Below, in pieces: positions 15,684 to 29,894 of a stretch of 35,573 bases of DNA. The stretch covers positions 1 to 35,573 of the forward strand of contig JAJEBZ010000111.1 in the NCBI GenBank assembly GCA_022822275.1, in the 5' to 3' direction. Under the pieces are notes generated by a model, which worked only from the letters and a program-made list of their open reading frames with translations, made no database searches and was not told the origin of the DNA. Origin of the DNA: Candidatus Poribacteria bacterium. GTDB taxonomy: Bacteria > Poribacteria > WGA-4E > WGA-3G. A program made the position numbers and the translations under genes. Each line of letters starts with the position of its first letter. Within the stretch, counting starts at the first letter, position 1.

Positions 15684-16988
15684 CTAACGCCTCGGCCTGA
15701 AAGAGGGAATGCCCGTTTTATCAAACCGTTCTTTGACCGCTTTCATGAGTTCAGGCGTTATTTCGCGATGTCCGTGTTCTCTTGCATATTTTTCAACGCT
15801 TTTGACGACCATGCCACGTGCAAATGAGGGAACTTTTTTCAGTCTTTGCTCTGCAGCCTCATTCCATATTAGGTCATAGTCTGGTTCTGACGCAAATGCT
15901 GTCCGCTTTTCAAGTTGGACAGGTTGTTGTCCGTGCTGCCCTGGTTGGTATTCACAAGACTCGTCTGCTGCAAGATAGTTACCGGTAGTGGCATAAGCCC
16001 GCGCTCGACAACCGCCACAGACCTCTTTGAATTCACACGCTCCACATTTTCCTTCAAGCAGATTCCGATCACGCAATTCATGAAAGGTTTCCGATTCATT
16101 CCACAGTTTAACAAAACTTTCATCTTTGAGATTGCCAACGCTGACAGGTAGATACGGACACGGTGTCAGTTCACCCTCCGGACTGATACGACAGTAATAG
16201 ATGCCACAAGGGCATGTGCCACTTGGGTATCCTTGTAGGAACGCAGAATCGGACTGCTGCCCATAGATAACACGTTTATAGTGTGGTGCGCATTTCGCTG
16301 CGATGAGCATTTTCCCACTATATTTTGCCTGCAGTTGGAACATCGTCTCAAGCATCTTTTCGTATTGTGCAGGCGTGATGTCCATTACCGTCTTACCTCT
16401 TCCTGTCCGCACAAGAAAATAGAGGTTTAGTACCTTCGCACCTAACTGATAGGCATATTCTACAATCTCAGGGATTTCATCGTAATTCCATTGCGTCACA
16501 GAGGTCTGGACGAGAAAGTCAAGTTTTGCCTGTTTGAGTGCGTCAATGCCGTTCATTGTCGCTTGCCACGCGCCTTCCATGCCCCGAAATTGGTCATGAT
16601 TTTTGGGTTGGATAGAATCAAGACTTATACCCGCACCCGTAACACCGTTTTGTTGCATCTTCTCCACTACGTCATCGTTCAGTAGAACCCCGTTTGTTCC
16701 CATCACAACAAGGAATCCGGTATTGGAAGCATATTTTGAAATCTCCAGAATATCGGGACGCAGCAACGGTTCGCCACCCGTGAGTATCAGCAGAATATGC
16801 GGATTGATTTCGGCTATCTCATCTATCACACGAAAACATTCGGATTGTGTTAACTCTGTTTCCCTAACAAAACCTTGCGGAAATTCATCTGTGTCTACAA
16901 AGCCAGCGGGGAGATAGCAGTGTGTGCATTTCAGATTGCACAACCGGGTGATATTCCATGAGACTGCCTGAATTTTTGTATTATTCAT
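15684..16988 (-). CDS. Radical SAM/SPASM protein with C-terminal PCP_red domain
   Basis: The 434-residue protein carries the radical SAM motif CNLKCTHC (Cys17, Cys21, Cys24) and TGGEPLLRPD. Auxiliary SPASM-type cysteines occur at about 253-260 (CPCGIYYC) and 315-330 (CGACEFKEVCGGC). The overall layout resembles NirJ/AhbC/AhbD enzymes that modify heme precursors and related SPASM maturases. Residues about 376-424 form a PCP_red domain (EQRLKKVPSFARGMVVKSVE..AREHGHREIT). The start codon directly follows the stop of the upstream CopD/HemJ-like gene without a spacer. That neighbour, and the porphyrin-reductase origin of the C-terminal domain, hint at tetrapyrrole chemistry, but peptide maturation is equally possible from sequence alone. 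Confidence 0.85.
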   Translation of the reverse strand: MNNTKIQAVSWNITRLCNLKCTHCYLPAGFVDTDEFPQGFVRETELTQSECFRVIDEIAEINPHILLILTGGEPLLRPDILEISKYASNTGFLVVMGTNGVLLNDDVVEKMQQNGVTGAGISLDSIQPKNHDQFRGMEGAWQATMNGIDALKQAKLDFLVQTSVTQWNYDEIPEIVEYAYQLGAKVLNLYFLVRTGRGKTVMDITPAQYEKMLETMFQLQAKYSGKMLIAAKCAPHYKRVIYGQQSDSAFLQGYPSGTCPCGIYYCRISPEGELTPCPYLPVSVGNLKDESFVKLWNESETFHELRDRNLLEGKCGACEFKEVCGGCRARAYATTGNYLAADESCEYQPGQHGQQPVQLEKRTAFASEPDYDLIWNEAAEQRLKKVPSFARGMVVKSVEKYAREHGHREITPELMKAVKERFDKTGIPSFRPRR

Positions 16989-17447
16989 TTATTTTTTCAA
17001 TAGCAACGCAAGTGCGAAAACAATTAATCCTGAAAAAAGCGTTAGATGTCCAAAAACATTTATATGACGAGGGACACTGATTGGACTATCTGGGTCTGAT
17101 ACTTCAAGGTGTTTGCGATAAAGTGAACTGAACAGTCCCCAAAAGAGAACCATCAATCCAAATGCTGCTAACTTTACAACAGAATATATCATATACTTAG
17201 ACTCTAATTGCATATCGTTGTTCCACGCAACAATAAAGATGACAATTCCACCTGTGAGTAGAAGCATATTTATCATCAATCGCATCCAGTGCCGAAAACG
17301 ATTGTGTATTTCCAGCAAATCTTGTGCTGGTAGGTTTTGCCGACAAATTGGCATTGCGATCAAGGTTGTAAAAAACACACCTCCGAACCAAATTATTGCT
17401 GCGATTAGGTGTATAGATCGGATGAGAAGTTCTACGATATGGCCCAT
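16989..17447 (-). CDS. CopD/HemJ-like four-helix membrane protein
   Basis: The 152-residue protein has four membrane segments. The first reads SIHLIAAIIWFGGVFF, where the conserved His and the Trp-x-Gly pattern match the CopD domain of copper-resistance proteins and the related HemJ protoporphyrinogen oxidase family. FRHWMRLMINMLLLTGG in the second helix also fits. HemJ uses such histidines for heme. Its stop codon abuts the ATG of the radical SAM gene, so the two are surely co-transcribed. Whether it acts on copper or porphyrin cannot be settled here; the gene pair favours tetrapyrrole metabolism. Confidence 0.65.
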   Translation of the reverse strand: MGHIVELLIRSIHLIAAIIWFGGVFFTTLIAMPICRQNLPAQDLLEIHNRFRHWMRLMINMLLLTGGIVIFIVAWNNDMQLESKYMIYSVVKLAAFGLMVLFWGLFSSLYRKHLEVSDPDSPISVPRHINVFGHLTLFSGLIVFALALLLKK

Positions 17448-17455
17448 TTCTAACT

Positions 17456-18181
17456 TTACACTGCATTTGACGTTGGAGTACGAGAATCAACAATCCGAAG
17501 GAGATGACTCGCGAACATGATGATTTCTACAGCTTCCTCTGCTGAAACAGAAACATTTCGATGACTATGCGGATTCTTGTAAAGTCCAATAGATCCAGAA
17601 AAGAGGTGAAGTGTGGCTTCTCTTTCCGCTTTAGGTTGATTTTGATCTGTCAAAGGCCCATTTTCAACTTTAAACGCCTGTCGCATCAAGTCAGTTCCAT
17701 ATTTTTCAGTATAACCACTTGCATCCCGAACAGCTACCTCCACTGCCTTAAATGCTTCAAATATAGCAGTGTCGTACTTGCCCCGTGAAAAGTTTGACCA
17801 GACATCTTCTGTTATTGCAGAGTGAATCAACTGTTTAGGCAAAAGGTTCGCTTTGCGATAGGCTTCCAAATCGGCTGCGTTTATTACACGCTCCCCTTCT
17901 CTGGTAATGGAAACCATGTCATCATGAAATCCTGGAGTAGGTACAATAAAACCTTCTCTGTCTAGGTACATCCATGCTTCCCTGAGTGCATTGGTAATGT
18001 TCTTTTGATGTTCACCAGGGTACTCTTCGACCGTATGTGACGAACTGAAATTATGAAGACTAAATTGGGGGTCACCTTTGGGAAGGGAATGCAGGTACTC
18101 CAAAACAATCCCCGCTAATTCCTCTGGTTCAAGACTTAGCAATACTTCATGGTCTGGTATTAGTTTATAAATTGTCAACAT
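17456..18181 (-). CDS. TIGR02391 (Ymh) family protein
   Basis: The 241-residue protein matches the TIGR02391/Ymh family. The N-terminal half is a winged-helix-like region (NALREAWMYLDREGFIVPTPG). The C-terminal half contains HSAITEDVWSNFSRGKYDTAIFEAFKAVEVAVRD and a late GLYKNPHSHRN. The latter resembles the RNxxxH-type loop of HEPN nucleases, but with Lys in place of Arg. The family is often found near restriction-modification genes and prophages. The ATG at 18181 is chosen because GGGAG lies just upstream; an in-frame TTG at 18193 overlaps that site. It is the last gene of the cassette with the DUF932 and methyltransferase-HNH genes, 94 bp after DUF932. Confidence 0.8.
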   Translation of the reverse strand: MLTIYKLIPDHEVLLSLEPEELAGIVLEYLHSLPKGDPQFSLHNFSSSHTVEEYPGEHQKNITNALREAWMYLDREGFIVPTPGFHDDMVSITREGERVINAADLEAYRKANLLPKQLIHSAITEDVWSNFSRGKYDTAIFEAFKAVEVAVRDASGYTEKYGTDLMRQAFKVENGPLTDQNQPKAEREATLHLFSGSIGLYKNPHSHRNVSVSAEEAVEIIMFASHLLRIVDSRTPTSNAV

Positions 18182-18275
18182 TTTTTCTCCCAATAGGCAA
18201 TGACAAGACTATAGCAAATCAGACGATATATTAAATCAAAGTTATACAATCAGACATATTGTTTTCATTCTAATA

Positions 18276-19298
18276 TTATCCACCAATTATCAGTGTGATC
18301 GGTTTTTCTGTTTTCAACAATGCCTCCATTAAGTGAGGAATATCCATGAGCCAAGCAAGTTGCCCTTGTATTGTTCCTCGCTGACCAGCAATCCAACTTA
18401 GGACTTGACTGATATCGTAGGCATTTCGCACTGGTGCGTACTCATGGGAACCGGGAACCTTATTTATGCTACTAACTTCACGATCATGGGGTTTGACATT
18501 TTTCTCAAATGGTTTGACAATCTCGCCATCATACCCTGTTTTGGCAATATGGTAAACCCTCGCAGCTGCATGGATCCCCCATTTTTTTGCAACAACTTTA
18601 TCAATCCAATGTTCAATTTGGCCAGGGCTTGGCTTTGATTCTGATAACTTCTGGTGAAGTATTTTCCTTTGATGCCAATTCTTATACAAGCGTTGTTCTT
18701 TTGGAAATTGTTCAAGTTGTTCTTTTAAGAATTCTTTGATGTGTTCAAGCAAAAGTGATTGTAAGTGAATTTTTCTGAATCGTGCATCTGAGATACCATA
18801 GGTCATGCCATTACTACAAACAAGGCGTTCTAAACTTAGGTTGATTTCCAAAGCTGTAGTTTTATCCACTGAATTTAAGGCGTTTACTTTAAGCACAATA
18901 GGGTCTCCACCATCTAAATCGAAGTAGTAATCGGGCAAGAAAAAACTTATTTGCATACGTTCGCCATACTCTGTAAGTGCTAGTTCCGCCTCAAGACGCT
19001 GTGGATTAAAGTTAATTTGTTCGAGAGCATCTTCTAACGCTCGGAGAACATCATGATGTTGAATAAGATTATACTGCCTTGAGACAGTCGCAATAGGTAT
19101 ATGCACCGTATCATCATCTGGCAGAAGATAACCATGGTTTTCCTTGAGAGGCTTTCGTACTATGATGTCAAAATGTTGGTTCATTCCCCCGTTTTCTACC
19201 CGAAACGGCTCTCTCCTAAAATAAGGAATCTGCTGCCGGAGCTCATTGATAGACCCTTTGTAGAATTTCACTTTTCTCGCGTGCCATGTAGGTGCCAT
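18276..19298 (-). CDS. DUF932-like phage/plasmid-associated protein
   Basis: The 340-residue protein contains the hallmark LERLVCSNGMTYG (around residue 156), preceded by ALEINLSLERL. This matches the DUF932 family found on plasmids, phages and mobile islands. The upstream half has the typical beta-rich region with YNLIQHHDVLRALEDAL, and the C-terminal half is helical. Its biochemical role is unknown. The ATG at 19298 follows AAAGGAG at a good distance; an in-frame TTG 13 codons earlier is less likely. It starts 45 bp after the methyltransferase-HNH gene and is probably co-transcribed with it. Confidence 0.75.
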   Translation of the reverse strand: MAPTWHARKVKFYKGSINELRQQIPYFRREPFRVENGGMNQHFDIIVRKPLKENHGYLLPDDDTVHIPIATVSRQYNLIQHHDVLRALEDALEQINFNPQRLEAELALTEYGERMQISFFLPDYYFDLDGGDPIVLKVNALNSVDKTTALEINLSLERLVCSNGMTYGISDARFRKIHLQSLLLEHIKEFLKEQLEQFPKEQRLYKNWHQRKILHQKLSESKPSPGQIEHWIDKVVAKKWGIHAAARVYHIAKTGYDGEIVKPFEKNVKPHDREVSSINKVPGSHEYAPVRNAYDISQVLSWIAGQRGTIQGQLAWLMDIPHLMEALLKTEKPITLIIGG

Positions 19299-19343
19299 GT
19301 CATACTCCTTTGAAGGTGGTGCTTGATGGAAACTCAAGTTATT

Positions 19344-20786
19344 TTATATTCCGTTTAAGTTATATTGGTGCGGTGTTTCTTGAATACGTTGGACAAGGTA
19401 TTGCCACGTCCATTCACTTGCTTTCCTTAGATCTATAAGTGTGCCTTCTTTCATGTATCCTTTTTGTTTATTGATTTTACGTAGTTGAGGAAGCGTCATA
19501 CGGTTGCTTTTTTCGAGGTTGCAAGGTTTACACAAAAGCGCACGGTTATTTATATGATGCTGACCATAATCATCCTTTCCACTTTTTGGGTTGATATGGT
19601 CAAGTTCAAGATAGCGTGGATCAGGTGCTTCAAAATTACACCCCCAACAGTAGGGTCCAAACTTCTCTATAAGCGTCTTGTGTATTTCTGCACGCGTCAT
19701 TTGAAATTCTTCGGTAATTGGCAGGACAGGTGGCAACTCGGTTGCTGCGGTTTCTTGATTATCAGTACGGGCAGGTGGTTCTGTTTGGTAGTGCATTTCG
19801 TACGGTTGCATTTGTCTGTCAAGCCATGTTTTATCTCTCGCGTATTGCTCAAGTCGTTCCCGTTCTTTTGGATCAATTCCCATGAGACGTGTGATAATGT
19901 GATAACGTGCGTCCTTACGTCTGTCAATACCTATCCAACGACGGTTGAGGTTATTGGCGGCGATAATCGTTGTTGCACACCCGCAGAATGGGTCTAACAC
20001 AATGTCCCCCTCGCTGCTACTGGCTTCAATGATACGTTCGTAAAGAGTTAGCGGTTTTTGGTCGGGAGAACCAGTACGTTCTTTTGCCATGTTATTTATT
20101 GTTGGTATCCTCCAAACGTCGTGCATTAGTTTTCCCTTCTCGTTTGGACTGTACCGTGGATCACCGTAACTAGCAGATGCTTTTACCCAATTACTATCTG
20201 CTGCATAAGGTTCGCGCATACTATCCCAATTAAAAAGCGTTGCTTTACTTTTGGCATAGAAGAAGATTGTGTCATGCTTACGCCCAAGGAATTTCCTTGA
20301 TGTTGATGCAACATTGTAATAATGCCACACAACCTCATTTCGAAAGTTGTTTTTCCCGAAGATAGCATCCATTACCATTCGGATGTAACTATTAACGTTG
20401 TGATCGCAGTGTAAATAAATTGACCCCGTGTCTTTTAGGATACGATGCATTTCAAGGAGTCGGACGCTGAGAAAACAAAGAAATGCTGCGGTGTCTTCGT
20501 CTCTAACAACTTTTGTGGCTTCAATAACTTTGTAGAGTGCAGGGTGACCGTCTTGAATAGTTTCAAGCCATTTGGGATGAACTTCATTCCACTTCCATTG
20601 ATCAGGTAGTTTGTCTGTGTCTCCGTATTTCCACTTATCAACGTAGAATCCAGCAGAACCACTTCGATTCCGCTTGGTATTGAACGGTGGGTCAGTTGCA
20701 ATGAGGTCTATGCTATTGCTATTAATTCCACGTAGTACCTCTAAATTGTCCATTTCGTAGAGTGTATTGGCTATGTCTTGTGTCAT
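19344..20786 (-). CDS. DNA methyltransferase fused to a C-terminal HNH domain
   Basis: The 480-residue protein has an N-terminal amino-methyltransferase domain of beta-type motif order. The catalytic motif DPPFNT lies at residues 32-37 and the SAM-binding motif DPFCGCATT follows at about 264-272. Residues about 378-427 form an HNH nuclease module: CWGC, the ELDHINPKSGKDDYG core, HHINNRALLC and CKPCN, with all four zinc cysteines and the HNH histidines present. Modification and cleavage activities could thus reside in one chain, or the HNH domain may serve only in DNA binding. The ATG at 20786 is favoured because AGGAG lies 9 nt before it and directly abuts the earlier ATG at 20795. A mobile-like element begins 59 bp upstream of the start codon. 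Confidence 0.85.
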   Translation of the reverse strand: MTQDIANTLYEMDNLEVLRGINSNSIDLIATDPPFNTKRNRSGSAGFYVDKWKYGDTDKLPDQWKWNEVHPKWLETIQDGHPALYKVIEATKVVRDEDTAAFLCFLSVRLLEMHRILKDTGSIYLHCDHNVNSYIRMVMDAIFGKNNFRNEVVWHYYNVASTSRKFLGRKHDTIFFYAKSKATLFNWDSMREPYAADSNWVKASASYGDPRYSPNEKGKLMHDVWRIPTINNMAKERTGSPDQKPLTLYERIIEASSSEGDIVLDPFCGCATTIIAANNLNRRWIGIDRRKDARYHIITRLMGIDPKERERLEQYARDKTWLDRQMQPYEMHYQTEPPARTDNQETAATELPPVLPITEEFQMTRAEIHKTLIEKFGPYCWGCNFEAPDPRYLELDHINPKSGKDDYGQHHINNRALLCKPCNLEKSNRMTLPQLRKINKQKGYMKEGTLIDLRKASEWTWQYLVQRIQETPHQYNLNGI

Positions 20787-20820
20787 GAAAAGCATCTCCT
20801 CATATTTGTCAAGTCTGAAA

Positions 20821-20844
20821 CTACTTATCTACTTATCTACTTAT
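20821..20844. repeat. Three tandem copies of CTACTTAT
   Basis: Three perfect 8-bp units lie side by side. The last one borders the left terminal inverted repeat of the adjacent element, and a fourth copy (21326-21333) borders its right end. The array therefore probably represents the target sequence, with one unit duplicated on insertion. Confidence 0.8.
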
Positions 20845-21325
20845 GGGCGTGTAAAGTTTTTGTACAATACATATTTTGCTTGTTTTTTGCAATGCTTAAA
20901 TAGAATTATGCACTCAATTTGTCGTTAGCACTGATTCTGCAAAACATACCACGTGGTATGAAATATCATACCGTGGTATGTTTTGTAAATTGGCTTTTAA
21001 TCCAGTCGTAGTAAGGTCTGAAAGGCGTTTTTTTCGAAAACATAATTTTTTTGAGTTTTTTATCTTTTTTTGAGTTTTGTGTGTTTTTTTGCTGCGTTTT
21101 CATGTCTATGGAATTCTGGAATGGAATTTTCCTCTCTGACAGATAAACCTTATTAGATAGTACTTTTTGAGTTGAGACGTTGATTTTTTGTTTTTCATAG
21201 TTATATTATACATTATTTTCGGTGAGTACAATTTTGTTTTTAGTGTTTAGTTATTGGGATTTCCAATAAGTTTAATGTGTATTTGGATTTATTGAAAAAT
21301 TCAGTACAAAAACTTTACACACCCA
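20845..21325. mobile_element. MITE-like non-coding element with IS256-type terminal inverted repeats
   Basis: The left end (20845-20865) and the right end (21304-21324) are inverted repeats matching at 20 of 21 bases. They begin GGGYGTGTAAAG and continue TTTTTGTAC. Each end is bordered by CTACTTAT (20837-20844 and 21326-21333), an 8-bp direct repeat that fits a target-site duplication. The TGTGTAAA-type end and the 8-bp duplication match the IS256 (Mutator) family. The 0.44-kb interior is AT-rich, holds no gene and contains the large palindrome at 20940-20985. A transposase from a full-length relative would be needed for movement. Confidence 0.75.
20940..20985. repeat. Nested palindrome with cruciform potential
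   Basis: Outer arms CAAAACATACCACG (20940-20953) and its exact complement (20972-20985) enclose inner arms GGTATGA and TCATACC around an AATA loop. The left half alone is a perfect 16-bp palindrome (20945-20960), and the right half (20967-20980) is the same sequence lacking two bases. The whole can fold as one long hairpin or as two small ones. It could be an operator or a transposase/DNA-structure site. Confidence 0.7.
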
Positions 21326-21335
21326 CTACTTATTG

Positions 21336-21376
21336 CGTAAACTTATATACTCTCACATCTCTCATAAAAGTTTACG
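21336..21376. repeat. Inverted repeat next to the mobile element
   Basis: CGTAAACTT (21336-21344) and AAGTTTACG (21368-21376) are perfect 9-bp inverted repeats with a 23-bp spacer. They resemble the AAACT/AGTTT stem found at 71-83 at the start of the window. Confidence 0.45.
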
Positions 21377-21451
21377 TCTTGTGCAACCATATCTGGATTT
21401 CCTATCTGACTGAAAACGGATAAGTCAATCGTATAAGATAAAAGCAGGTTA

Positions 21452-22153
21452 TCAAGAACTGCGTGCTTGCAGACGCGCAAGTTCTTCTCGGAGTTGTGCG
21501 TTTTCTGCTTCTGCAGCTTCGGCACGTGCTTCCGCATTATCGGCACGTATTGCTTCAGCTTCCGCGCGTGTTCGGACCCAGTCGTTCGCAACAGGATCAT
21601 AAATACCTATTTCTCCATCCCGTATCCGAAAATCTAAATCCAGAGCAGAGGAACGGATACCTCCATTCTCATCTGGGGAAATTGCTACGTAGCTGCCATC
21701 TACTAATTCATAGCCCATCAGTTGGGAAGGTAAATATACATCCTCTGCATCATATAAAAAGTAGTTCTTTATGCCAAGGGACGCATAAATATCCATCTTA
21801 TCTGTCAAGTCATTCCTATACGTGCTTTCACTACTAAACTCCATCACGAAATCTGGCACTTTTCCCTCTTCCCAAACCAAGTATGTTCGGCGTAGTTTCA
21901 TTCCTATGCCGAATGTGACGAGAACATCTGGTGATATAGACTTACTGGGAACACCTTGCAAGTAATACATCAGAATATCGCCGGAGATATAGACTGATGG
22001 GTCATGTGAGAAATATGCTTCAAGTGCCGCTAATGTCCAATATAATTGGTGTCTGTGACGATCGCTTGCTGCCATCGGTTTTCCATCCTCTGAAGGATAA
22101 AGTGCATCTGTTGGGACAAAAGGGAGCTTGTATTTTTTAATTTCAGTATCCAT
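21452..22153 (-). CDS. Uma2-family putative endonuclease with C-terminal coiled coil
   Basis: The 233-residue protein carries the Uma2 core: DRHRHQLYWTLAALEAYF, then SPDVLVTFG and FVMEFSSESTYRNDLTDKMDIYASLGIKNYF, providing the expected Asp and Glu of a PD-(D/E)XK site. Residues about 195-233 form an Ala/Glu-rich coiled coil (RADNAEARAEAAEAENAQLRE), a common extension in Uma2 proteins and probably used for oligomerisation. AAGGAGAACATTATG precedes it, almost the same leader as the Uma2 gene at 13609-14181. It shares little beyond the core with that protein, so the two are not recent copies. Confidence 0.88.
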   Translation of the reverse strand: MDTEIKKYKLPFVPTDALYPSEDGKPMAASDRHRHQLYWTLAALEAYFSHDPSVYISGDILMYYLQGVPSKSISPDVLVTFGIGMKLRRTYLVWEEGKVPDFVMEFSSESTYRNDLTDKMDIYASLGIKNYFLYDAEDVYLPSQLMGYELVDGSYVAISPDENGGIRSSALDLDFRIRDGEIGIYDPVANDWVRTRAEAEAIRADNAEARAEAAEAENAQLREELARLQARSS

Positions 22154-29024: not shown

Positions 29025-29894
29025 TTAATGCGTGCCAACTTCAATACGTTTTTCTGCTATAGCTGCCATTTCGTTGTCAATCTCGAACCCGATAAAGTTT
29101 CGTCCCTCTTTTCGTGCTGCGACTCCAGTAGAACCCGAACCAGCAAAAGGGTCACATACGATAGAACCTTCAGCAGAGAAGATTCGGATGAGGTGTTGCA
29201 GCAAAGGCACGGGTTTGGCAGCGATATGCCCAAATTTCTCACGAGGTTTAGGCACAGGGATGACAGTGCCAGGGAATCGGTCTTTTTCAAGAACCGGTTC
29301 AGAAACATCAATGAGCCCTGTCTGGTGTTGTAGCCAATTGTCCACAAACGTTCCTTCCCGTGGAGCTTGTGCTAATATAATAACTTCCATCTGTGGCTTG
29401 AGTTGCGGGGTTTTCCTGCCGCCTAAAGCCTTGATTATCCTCTCTTTTTCATCAGTAGGCAGATTACGTTTTCGGACGAAATGGTCCTGTTTAAATGCTT
29501 TTGCTTGTCCTTCGTATTTCCACGCCAACAGATCACGTATTTCAAAACCAGCTTCCTCTATAGCGATAGTTGCTCTATGTGAAAGTCGTGGGTGCGAAAA
29601 ACAGAGTACGAACCCACCTGGTTTGATAATCCGTTTCCACTGTTCTGCAATCGGTTTCAGGAATCGGTATAGATTTTGTCCTTGTGCTTTGTCAAACTTC
29701 ATCCCGACAGGTAACCCACCAATAACGCCTTTTTTCTGTCTGGACCTTATTCGTTGTGTATCCCAACTGTCGTCCATCCCATCAAGGAAGTAGGGCGGAT
29801 CTGTCAGGATGAGAGACACGGTTTGCGGTGCGACTTTGGACATCCCTTTACGGCAGTCAATACATTTTATCCAAGAGTCCCCATTTTTTTTCAT
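29025..29894 (-). CDS. Adenine-specific-type DNA methyltransferase within the cox cluster
   Basis: The 289-residue protein has beta-class motif order: DPPY at 32-35 (ILTDPPYFLDG) first and the SAM-binding DPFAGSGSTGVAA at about 248-260 later. GGFVLCFSHPRL lies in between. It is a stand-alone N6-adenine or N4-cytosine methyltransferase; no endonuclease or specificity subunit adjoins it. It sits in the same direction between the CPNC protein gene and subunit III, with 42 bp and 68 bp gaps, interrupting an otherwise pure oxidase cluster. GAGG precedes the ATG. It is probably an insertion into the cluster, though no inverted repeats or duplications were found at its edges. Confidence 0.88.
   Translation of the reverse strand: MKKNGDSWIKCIDCRKGMSKVAPQTVSLILTDPPYFLDGMDDSWDTQRIRSRQKKGVIGGLPVGMKFDKAQGQNLYRFLKPIAEQWKRIIKPGGFVLCFSHPRLSHRATIAIEEAGFEIRDLLAWKYEGQAKAFKQDHFVRKRNLPTDEKERIIKALGGRKTPQLKPQMEVIILAQAPREGTFVDNWLQHQTGLIDVSEPVLEKDRFPGTVIPVPKPREKFGHIAAKPVPLLQHLIRIFSAEGSIVCDPFAGSGSTGVAARKEGRNFIGFEIDNEMAAIAEKRIEVGTH

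What the first reader, a model, noticed from the sequence alone, without database searches (positions are those of the whole stretch)
17456..20786. Compact cassette: methyltransferase-HNH fusion, DUF932 and TIGR02391 proteins
Three same-strand genes separated by 45 and 94 bp encode a DNA methyltransferase fused to an intact HNH module, a DUF932 protein typical of phages and plasmids, and a TIGR02391 protein with an RNxxxH-like loop. They lie between a MITE-like element and the radical SAM/CopD pair, and interrupt the otherwise PCP_red-rich region. This could be an undescribed restriction-like or anti-phage cassette.
Basis: inference. Interest (0 to 1): 0.65.

Follow-up and report, generated by a model that had tools for sequence, protein, structure and literature searches.

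The report
Swappable-specificity methylase–nuclease in defence hotspot
In a sponge-symbiont bacterium (Candidatus Poribacteria), three neighbouring genes that looked like one new antiviral cassette are unrelated genes collected at a gene-swapping hotspot; the first is probably a self-contained cut-or-methylate DNA enzyme whose recognition segment is swapped like a cartridge between relatives.

Summary
The sequence observation is correct. On the minus strand lie an N6-adenine methyltransferase–HNH fusion, a DUF932 protein and a TIGR02391/Hypoth_ymh (HEPN-type) protein, with gaps of exactly 45 and 94 bp, between a real MITE and CopD/radical SAM.

The 'single cassette' reading fails its own refutation test. 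In 85 genomes of the phylum the three genes share a contig only at this locus and its orthologue in one sister species. A close relative has a clean empty site (Uma2 and CopD 91 bp apart). Other relatives carry the methyltransferase–HNH alone, Ymh with other partners, HEPN/MNT, or TIR genes there. The site is a defence/toxin-antitoxin hotspot.

The methyltransferase–HNH gene is the interesting part. Both modules are under purifying selection (pairwise dN/dS about 0.02–0.23) and the HNH residues are invariant in 27 proteins. The gene stands alone in many contexts. Its ~80-residue target-recognition segment is exchanged as a cassette: at the same chromosomal site, backbone identity is 94% but segment identity 19%; elsewhere the segment is 94% identical on a 79% backbone. 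Trees reject vertical inheritance (AU p = 8e-7, 3e-5). This fits a compact single-chain restriction–modification enzyme; nuclease activity is inferred, not shown.

The parts
19344..20786 (-). Beta-class N6-adenine DNA methyltransferase fused to a C-terminal HNH nuclease module (480 aa); proposed single-chain restriction-modification enzyme
   Evidence: Pfam N6_N4_Mtase 6e-52 and HNH 5.6e-7; TDPPFN motif near the N-terminus and DPFCGCATT motif behind the TRD; Foldseek best matches MboIIA, RsrI, CcrM, BceJIV; dN/dS
20076..20315 (-). Target-recognition segment (about residues 158-237), the exchanged cassette
   Evidence: 5-45% identical to homologues whose flanks are 75-100% identical, yet 80-100% identical to homologues with diverged flanks
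19500..19649 (-). HNH module CxxC...LDH...N...LCxxCNxxK
   Evidence: C380, C383, D396, H397, N414, C419, C422, N423, K426 invariant in 27 proteins; strands 393-397 and 415-419 then helix 420-426, pLDDT 83-93 outside a low-confidence loop at 402-409
18276..19298 (-). DUF932 protein (340 aa from ATG; TTG start at 19337 possible), function unknown
   Evidence: PF06067 3.8e-13; ribosome-binding-like AAAGGAG upstream of the ATG; neighbours elsewhere include BrnT and TIR-like genes
17456..18181 (-). TIGR02391/Hypoth_Ymh HEPN-type protein: N-terminal helical/winged-helix-like half and C-terminal helical bundle with KNPHSH
   Evidence: Ymh listed as a HEPN family found in R-M operons (PMC3710099)
17561..17578 (-). 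KNPHSH (Kx4H) putative active loop of the HEPN domain
   Evidence: K202 invariant, H207 nearly invariant in 16 relatives
17436..21460 (.). Stretch absent from the orthologous site of the close relative G035 (empty site)
   Evidence: Uma2 stop and CopD start 91 bp apart in L191; flanking DNA 86-92% identical
20844..21325 (.). MITE with 22-bp inverted ends and CTACTTA duplication, inserted between Uma2 and the methyltransferase
21346..21456 (-). 3' remnant of an MNT-type nucleotidyltransferase gene, whole in relatives at this site
   Evidence: 68% identical over residues 64-104, E=2e-13
21452..22153 (-). Uma2-family gene, upstream edge of the hotspot
   Evidence: PF05685 6e-15; present at the site in many same-genus genomes
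16989..17447 (-). CopD-like membrane protein, downstream edge of the hotspot
15684..16988 (-). Radical SAM/SPASM protein with PCP_red C-terminus, conserved chromosomal anchor
   Evidence: 68 of 85 genomes at E<=1e-150

Best explanation
The region is a chromosomal hotspot between Uma2 and CopD/radical SAM where defence and toxin-antitoxin genes come and go (shown by comparison). The three genes are separate residents, not one machine (shown for conservation, inferred for function). The methyltransferase-HNH gene is most likely a self-contained single-chain restriction-modification enzyme of the Type IIC kind. One target-recognition segment directs both adenine methylation of a DNA motif and, at unmethylated sites, cleavage by the HNH module (inferred). 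Because both activities would read the same segment, the segment can be exchanged between relatives without a lethal mismatch, and the exchange is observed (shown). Ymh is probably an infection-triggered HEPN RNase acting on its own or with a partner absent here; DUF932 has unknown function (both inferred).
For: Empty site in G035 and partial occupancy in other relatives. Independent distribution of the three genes. MTase-HNH stands alone among housekeeping genes such as DegT aminotransferase, acylphosphatase, peptidyl-tRNA hydrolase and a Kdo-transferase-like gene. Pairwise dN/dS 0.045-0.23 for the methylase and 0.02-0.19 for the HNH part. HNH residues invariant. HNH fusion kept in divergent relatives; four copies in the own genome. 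TRD exchange: window vs L038 at the same site, backbone 94%, TRD 19%, HNH 88%; window vs L049, backbone 79%, TRD 94%, HNH 49%; rank correlation backbone-HNH 0.81, backbone-TRD 0.12; AU tests p=7.9e-7 and 3.1e-5; DNA-level patch. Precedent: TRDs of Type III enzymes move between non-orthologous genes (PMC3983042), and a functional fused R-M polypeptide has been built (PMC3039593).
Against: No cleavage or methylation data. TRD exchange is also compatible with a methylase lacking nuclease activity. The HNH final position is Asn rather than His (HNN variant). AlphaFold confidence for the whole chain is modest (pLDDT 67), with the catalytic loop 36-62 and part of the TRD poorly modelled. One relative (L056) has the HNH part shifted out of frame behind an open methylase part, so at least one host may do without the nuclease.
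Confidence: 0.6

Rival explanations
1. The three genes work together as one layered system: the methyltransferase-HNH restricts unmodified DNA and the HEPN Ymh protein acts as a back-up suicide RNase when restriction fails, with DUF932 as sensor or inhibitor.
For: Same strand, short gaps, kept together in two sister genomes. Ymh is reported in R-M operons and proposed as a PrrC/RloC analogue when fused to paraMORC (PMC3710099).
Against: No second independent co-occurrence in 85 genomes. Ymh is followed by an unrelated partner (c12, TIR-fused in two cases) in 6 of 12 other loci. The methyltransferase-HNH lives alone at the orthologous site in G042.
Confidence: 0.13
2. The protein is a solitary methylase used for gene regulation; the HNH module only binds or nicks DNA and does not restrict.
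For: No separate cognate endonuclease beside most copies. Frameshifted HNH in L056 with an open methylase part.
Against: The HNH module is at least as constrained as the methylase in most pairs, with all metal- and zinc-binding-type residues invariant. Rapid TRD exchange is typical of R-M systems rather than of conserved regulatory methylases (own knowledge; PMC3983042 for the R-M side).
Confidence: 0.17
3. The fusion is a phage- or homing-derived selfish gene: the HNH nuclease drives gene conversion of itself or of TRD cassettes and protection from phage is incidental.
For: A phage-like contig (L267) carries a 402-aa methylase-HNH. Copies move across families and into Chloroflexota. TRD patches look like gene conversion.
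Against: Copies sit between genes and do not interrupt a target gene. The empty site shows insertion of a whole block, not homing into a conserved sequence.
Confidence: 0.1

Closest known systems
Type IIC restriction-modification enzymes (TspGWI/TsoI family; engineered RM.Eco29kI, PMC3039593)
   Same: Nuclease, methylase and recognition domain in one chain; specificity set by one TRD (inferred here)
   Different: Here a compact 480-aa beta-class methylase with a C-terminal HNH; the Thermus bifunctional enzymes are described as large proteins (PMC3384240 abstract) and, from my own knowledge, carry PD-(D/E)XK nucleases
Beta-class N6-adenine methyltransferases RsrI, MboIIA, CcrM, BceJIV
   Same: Fold and motif order; best Foldseek and sequence matches
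   Different: None of those chains covers the HNH part, and these Poribacterial relatives exchange TRDs
Type III Mod and Type I HsdS TRD exchange in Helicobacter pylori (PMC3983042, PMC3077401)
   Same: Recognition segments move between non-orthologous genes at conserved flanking motifs
   Different: Here exchange is in a single-gene methylase-HNH family in sponge symbionts
Ymh (PF09509) HEPN proteins (PMC3710099)
   Same: Family membership; occurrence beside R-M genes
   Different: Motif Kx4H instead of Rx4H; here a solo protein, elsewhere in Poribacteria paired with c12 and sometimes TIR
MORC/paraMORC restriction-modification neighbourhoods (PMC2292703)
   Same: Some methyltransferase-HNH relatives sit beside a C5 methylase and a GHKL ATPase (L044, L045, L047, L155)
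   Different: No GHKL ATPase gene is adjacent to the gene in this window

Membership tests
Type IIC single-chain R-M enzyme | Methylase and nuclease domains in one polypeptide | tested here: met
   retained across relatives
Type IIC single-chain R-M enzyme | Demonstrated cleavage and methylation at the same recognition site | not testable with these tools
   needs purified enzyme or methylome data
Type IIC single-chain R-M enzyme | A recognition domain serving both activities | tested here: inconclusive
   TRD moves between backbones with different HNH versions, consistent but indirect
Beta-class amino-methyltransferase | Catalytic motif IV N-terminal, TRD, then SAM-binding motif I | tested here: met
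   TDPPFN at 31-36, TRD 158-237, DPFCGCATT at 265-273; structural matches
HNH nuclease (beta-beta-alpha metal) | Zinc-binding CxxC/CxxC, DH and N residues, and beta-beta-alpha fold | tested here: met
   the last position is Asn (HNN type); metal geometry was not measured
HEPN superfamily, Ymh family | Profile match to PF09509/TIGR02391 | tested here: met
HEPN superfamily, Ymh family | Rx4-6H motif | tested here: not met
   strictly Kx4H, family-wide in this branch; profile membership stands, RNase activity is uncertain
HEPN superfamily, Ymh family | Structural similarity to solved HEPN proteins | tested here: inconclusive
   2hsb and 1wol, both described as HEPN, appear among matches but with E>1
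Conserved multi-gene defence system | Recurrent co-localisation in independent genomes | tested here: not met
DUF932 (PF06067) / TIGR03299 | Profile match above cut-off | tested here: met
   PF06067 50 vs 23 bits; TIGR03299 below its cut-off, 28.9 vs 110.7 bits

The most novel reading that the evidence does not exclude
A compact, ATP-independent class of single-gene restriction-modification enzymes (beta-class adenine methylase plus HNH, about 480 aa). Its target-recognition cassettes circulate between paralogues, chromosomal sites and species of sponge symbionts, so that one recombination event changes both the methylation mark and the cut site at once.
Probability: 0.45. Interest if true: 0.6.

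Novelty: new variant of a known kind. Interest (0 to 1): 0.42.

Why it matters
If the methylase–HNH enzyme is active, it would be a very small restriction enzyme with naturally interchangeable specificity: about 16 different recognition cassettes sit on similar backbones, which would make the protein–DNA recognition code of beta-class methylases directly testable by swapping cassettes. It would also help explain how sponge symbionts, which live in dense mixed communities, diversify their DNA barriers. The negative result also matters: compact same-strand gene trios in hotspots should not be called systems without an independent second occurrence.

Tried and rejected
Three-gene cassette: rejected as a conserved unit. 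MITE as the vehicle of the cassette: rejected, because the sister locus L035 has the same three genes with only about 38 bp between Uma2 and the methylase ORF, no room for a MITE, and the element flanks one side only. Phage or plasmid origin of the window's DUF932: tblastn found no phage record and one weak plasmid hit, and IMG/VR gave one relative at 36%. Solved relatives of DUF932, Ymh or the isolated HNH module by sequence: none. Full-length fusion in plasmid and phage records: none covering 80% of the query; in viral contigs only the two best of 80 reach the HNH part. Structure of DUF932 was not attempted because only two outside sequences were eligible for the job.

Full report
Setting. 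The window is a contig (G000:C120) of a 4.5-Mb metagenome-assembled genome. Its closest named relatives are Candidatus Poribacteria. The genes of interest are on the minus strand.

Observation. Pfam and NCBIfam confirm N6_N4_Mtase plus HNH, DUF932, and Hypoth_Ymh/TIGR02391. The MITE-like element is genuine: 22-bp inverted ends, a 7-bp duplication and about 40 partial or complete copies in the genome. The 'RNxxxH-like' loop is in fact KNPHSH, with Lys invariant in 16 aligned relatives.

Is it a cassette? I searched 85 genomes of the phylum. Methyltransferase homologues occur in 82, DUF932 in 32, Ymh in 17. DUF932 and Ymh share a contig only in the window genome and in G032, at the same chromosomal site. 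Among the other DUF932 neighbourhoods and 12 further Ymh neighbourhoods that were read there is no other case of two of the three together. One ancestral event explains the data.

The site itself. Reading the interval upstream of the conserved radical SAM gene in 40 further genomes shows a hotspot. In G035, the closest relative (radical SAM 96%, CopD 90%), the Uma2 stop and CopD start are 91 bp apart and window positions 21460-17436 are missing: an empty site. G042 has only the methyltransferase-HNH, ending at the CopD start. G029 has Ymh plus a gene called c12 here. G028 has a TIR-TPR gene plus a c12 relative. G044 has a nucleotidyltransferase, TPR genes and Ymh up to a contig end. G038, G039 and G040 have a HEPN (NTase_sub_bind)-MNT pair. 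G030, G041 and G046 have an MNT-like gene; G031, G034 and G043 have nothing detected between the PCP_red gene and CopD; G032 has an extra NERD-UvrD gene between CopD and radical SAM. In the window an MNT remnant (21456-21346) is still visible. The three genes are thus residents of a defence/toxin-antitoxin hotspot assembled in steps.

The methyltransferase-HNH. It is a beta-class N6-adenine methylase by motif order (TDPPFN, TRD, DPFCGCATT) and by sequence and structure matches to RsrI, MboIIA, CcrM and BceJIV. The HNH residues C380, C383, D396, H397, N414, C419, C422, N423 and K426 are invariant in 27 proteins spanning 52-94% identity to the window protein. The model shows strand-strand-helix there with pLDDT about 83-93, apart from a low-confidence loop at 402-409. 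Pairwise dN/dS is 0.045-0.23 for the methylase and 0.02-0.19 for the HNH part, so both modules are maintained. The fusion is also present in divergent relatives, four copies in this genome, in Chloroflexota genomes, and in a phage-like contig. Other copies sit alone among housekeeping genes, or beside a C5 methylase and a GHKL ATPase.

Recognition-segment exchange. A segment of about 80 residues (158-237 here) behaves as a cassette. The window protein and the G042 protein occupy the same chromosomal site and share 94% of the backbone and 88% of the HNH part but only 19% of this segment. The window protein and L049 share 94% of the segment but only 79% of the backbone and 49% of the HNH part. 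L038 and L155 share 88% of the segment, 80% of the backbone and 50% of the HNH part. Across 30 proteins, backbone identity predicts HNH identity (rank correlation 0.81) but hardly predicts segment identity (0.12). On a tree of the remaining columns, holding the five proteins with the window's segment together is rejected (AU p=7.9e-7), as is holding the four with the G042 segment together (p=3.1e-5). The groups were named from the segments before the tree was seen. The patch is visible in DNA. The segment lies where beta-class methylases carry the target-recognition domain (established knowledge of the family).

How it probably works. In a two-gene Type II system, changing the methylase's recognition domain alone would leave the endonuclease cutting unprotected host sites. 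In a single chain where one domain guides both activities, a swap changes both at once. Free exchange of this segment among HNH-fused proteins is what that model predicts. It does not prove cleavage: a methylase with an inert HNH could also swap. Shown: exchange, constraint, solitary life, hotspot location. Inferred: cleavage by HNH, restriction function, shared use of the TRD.

Ymh and DUF932. Ymh is listed as a HEPN family found in R-M operons (PMC3710099). The model has a C-terminal helical bundle (mean pLDDT 86); HEPN structures appear among the Foldseek matches but not significantly. PADLOC gives weak matches to PD-Lambda-3_B and Aga_HEPN; PD-lambda-3 is reported as an abortive-infection system (PMC13190303). 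In Poribacteria the recurrent partner of Ymh is c12, in 6 of 12 other loci, fused to TIR in two. DUF932 remains of unknown function; in four relatives it overlaps the BrnT toxin gene by 17-35 bp and in two others it sits beside genes whose N-termini resemble TIR domains by eye.

Limits. Most genomes are draft bins, so contig breaks hide some neighbourhoods. The match list is truncated, so statements on methyltransferase neighbourhoods rest on the loci read. The dN/dS values are pairwise Nei-Gojobori estimates with dS near or above 1 for many pairs, and some comparisons were saturated. The paper library lacks most subscription journals and REBASE could not be searched, so prior description of this fusion class cannot be excluded.

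Noticed in passing
window 20844-21325: MITE with IS-like 22-bp ends and CTACTTA duplication, about 40 partial or complete copies in the genome; another copy lies about 1 kb from the methyltransferase-HNH paralogue on contig C38.
   Followed up: partly
L128, L131, L138, L139: BrnT-like toxin genes overlap the following DUF932 homologue by 17-35 bp, where an antitoxin would be expected; DUF932 could be an unusual BrnT partner.
   Followed up: partly
L140, L141, L143, L145, L146, L150 (also L210): Two-gene unit of Ymh and an unnamed ~300-aa protein (c12) that carries an N-terminal TIR domain in L143 and L146; candidate TIR/HEPN defence unit.
   Followed up: partly
L044, L045, L047, L155: Recurrent neighbourhood of a methyltransferase-HNH, a C5 cytosine methylase and a GHKL (paraMORC-like) ATPase with a possible C-terminal nuclease-like region.
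   Followed up: partly
L267:2986-4191: Phage-like viral contig encoding a 402-aa adenine methylase fused to HNH.
   Followed up: partly
L056:5923-7451: Methyltransferase-HNH copy in a chromosome-level assembly with the HNH part out of frame behind an open methylase part, possibly nuclease lost first.
   Followed up: no
L135, L154: DUF932 genes directly flanked by genes whose N-termini look TIR-like (FITYSHENTEAK, FITYAHKSSDAK).
   Followed up: no
window 29025-29894: A second DNA methylase-like gene (289 aa, DPPY motif) in the same window, weakly related to the fused methylase.
   Followed up: no
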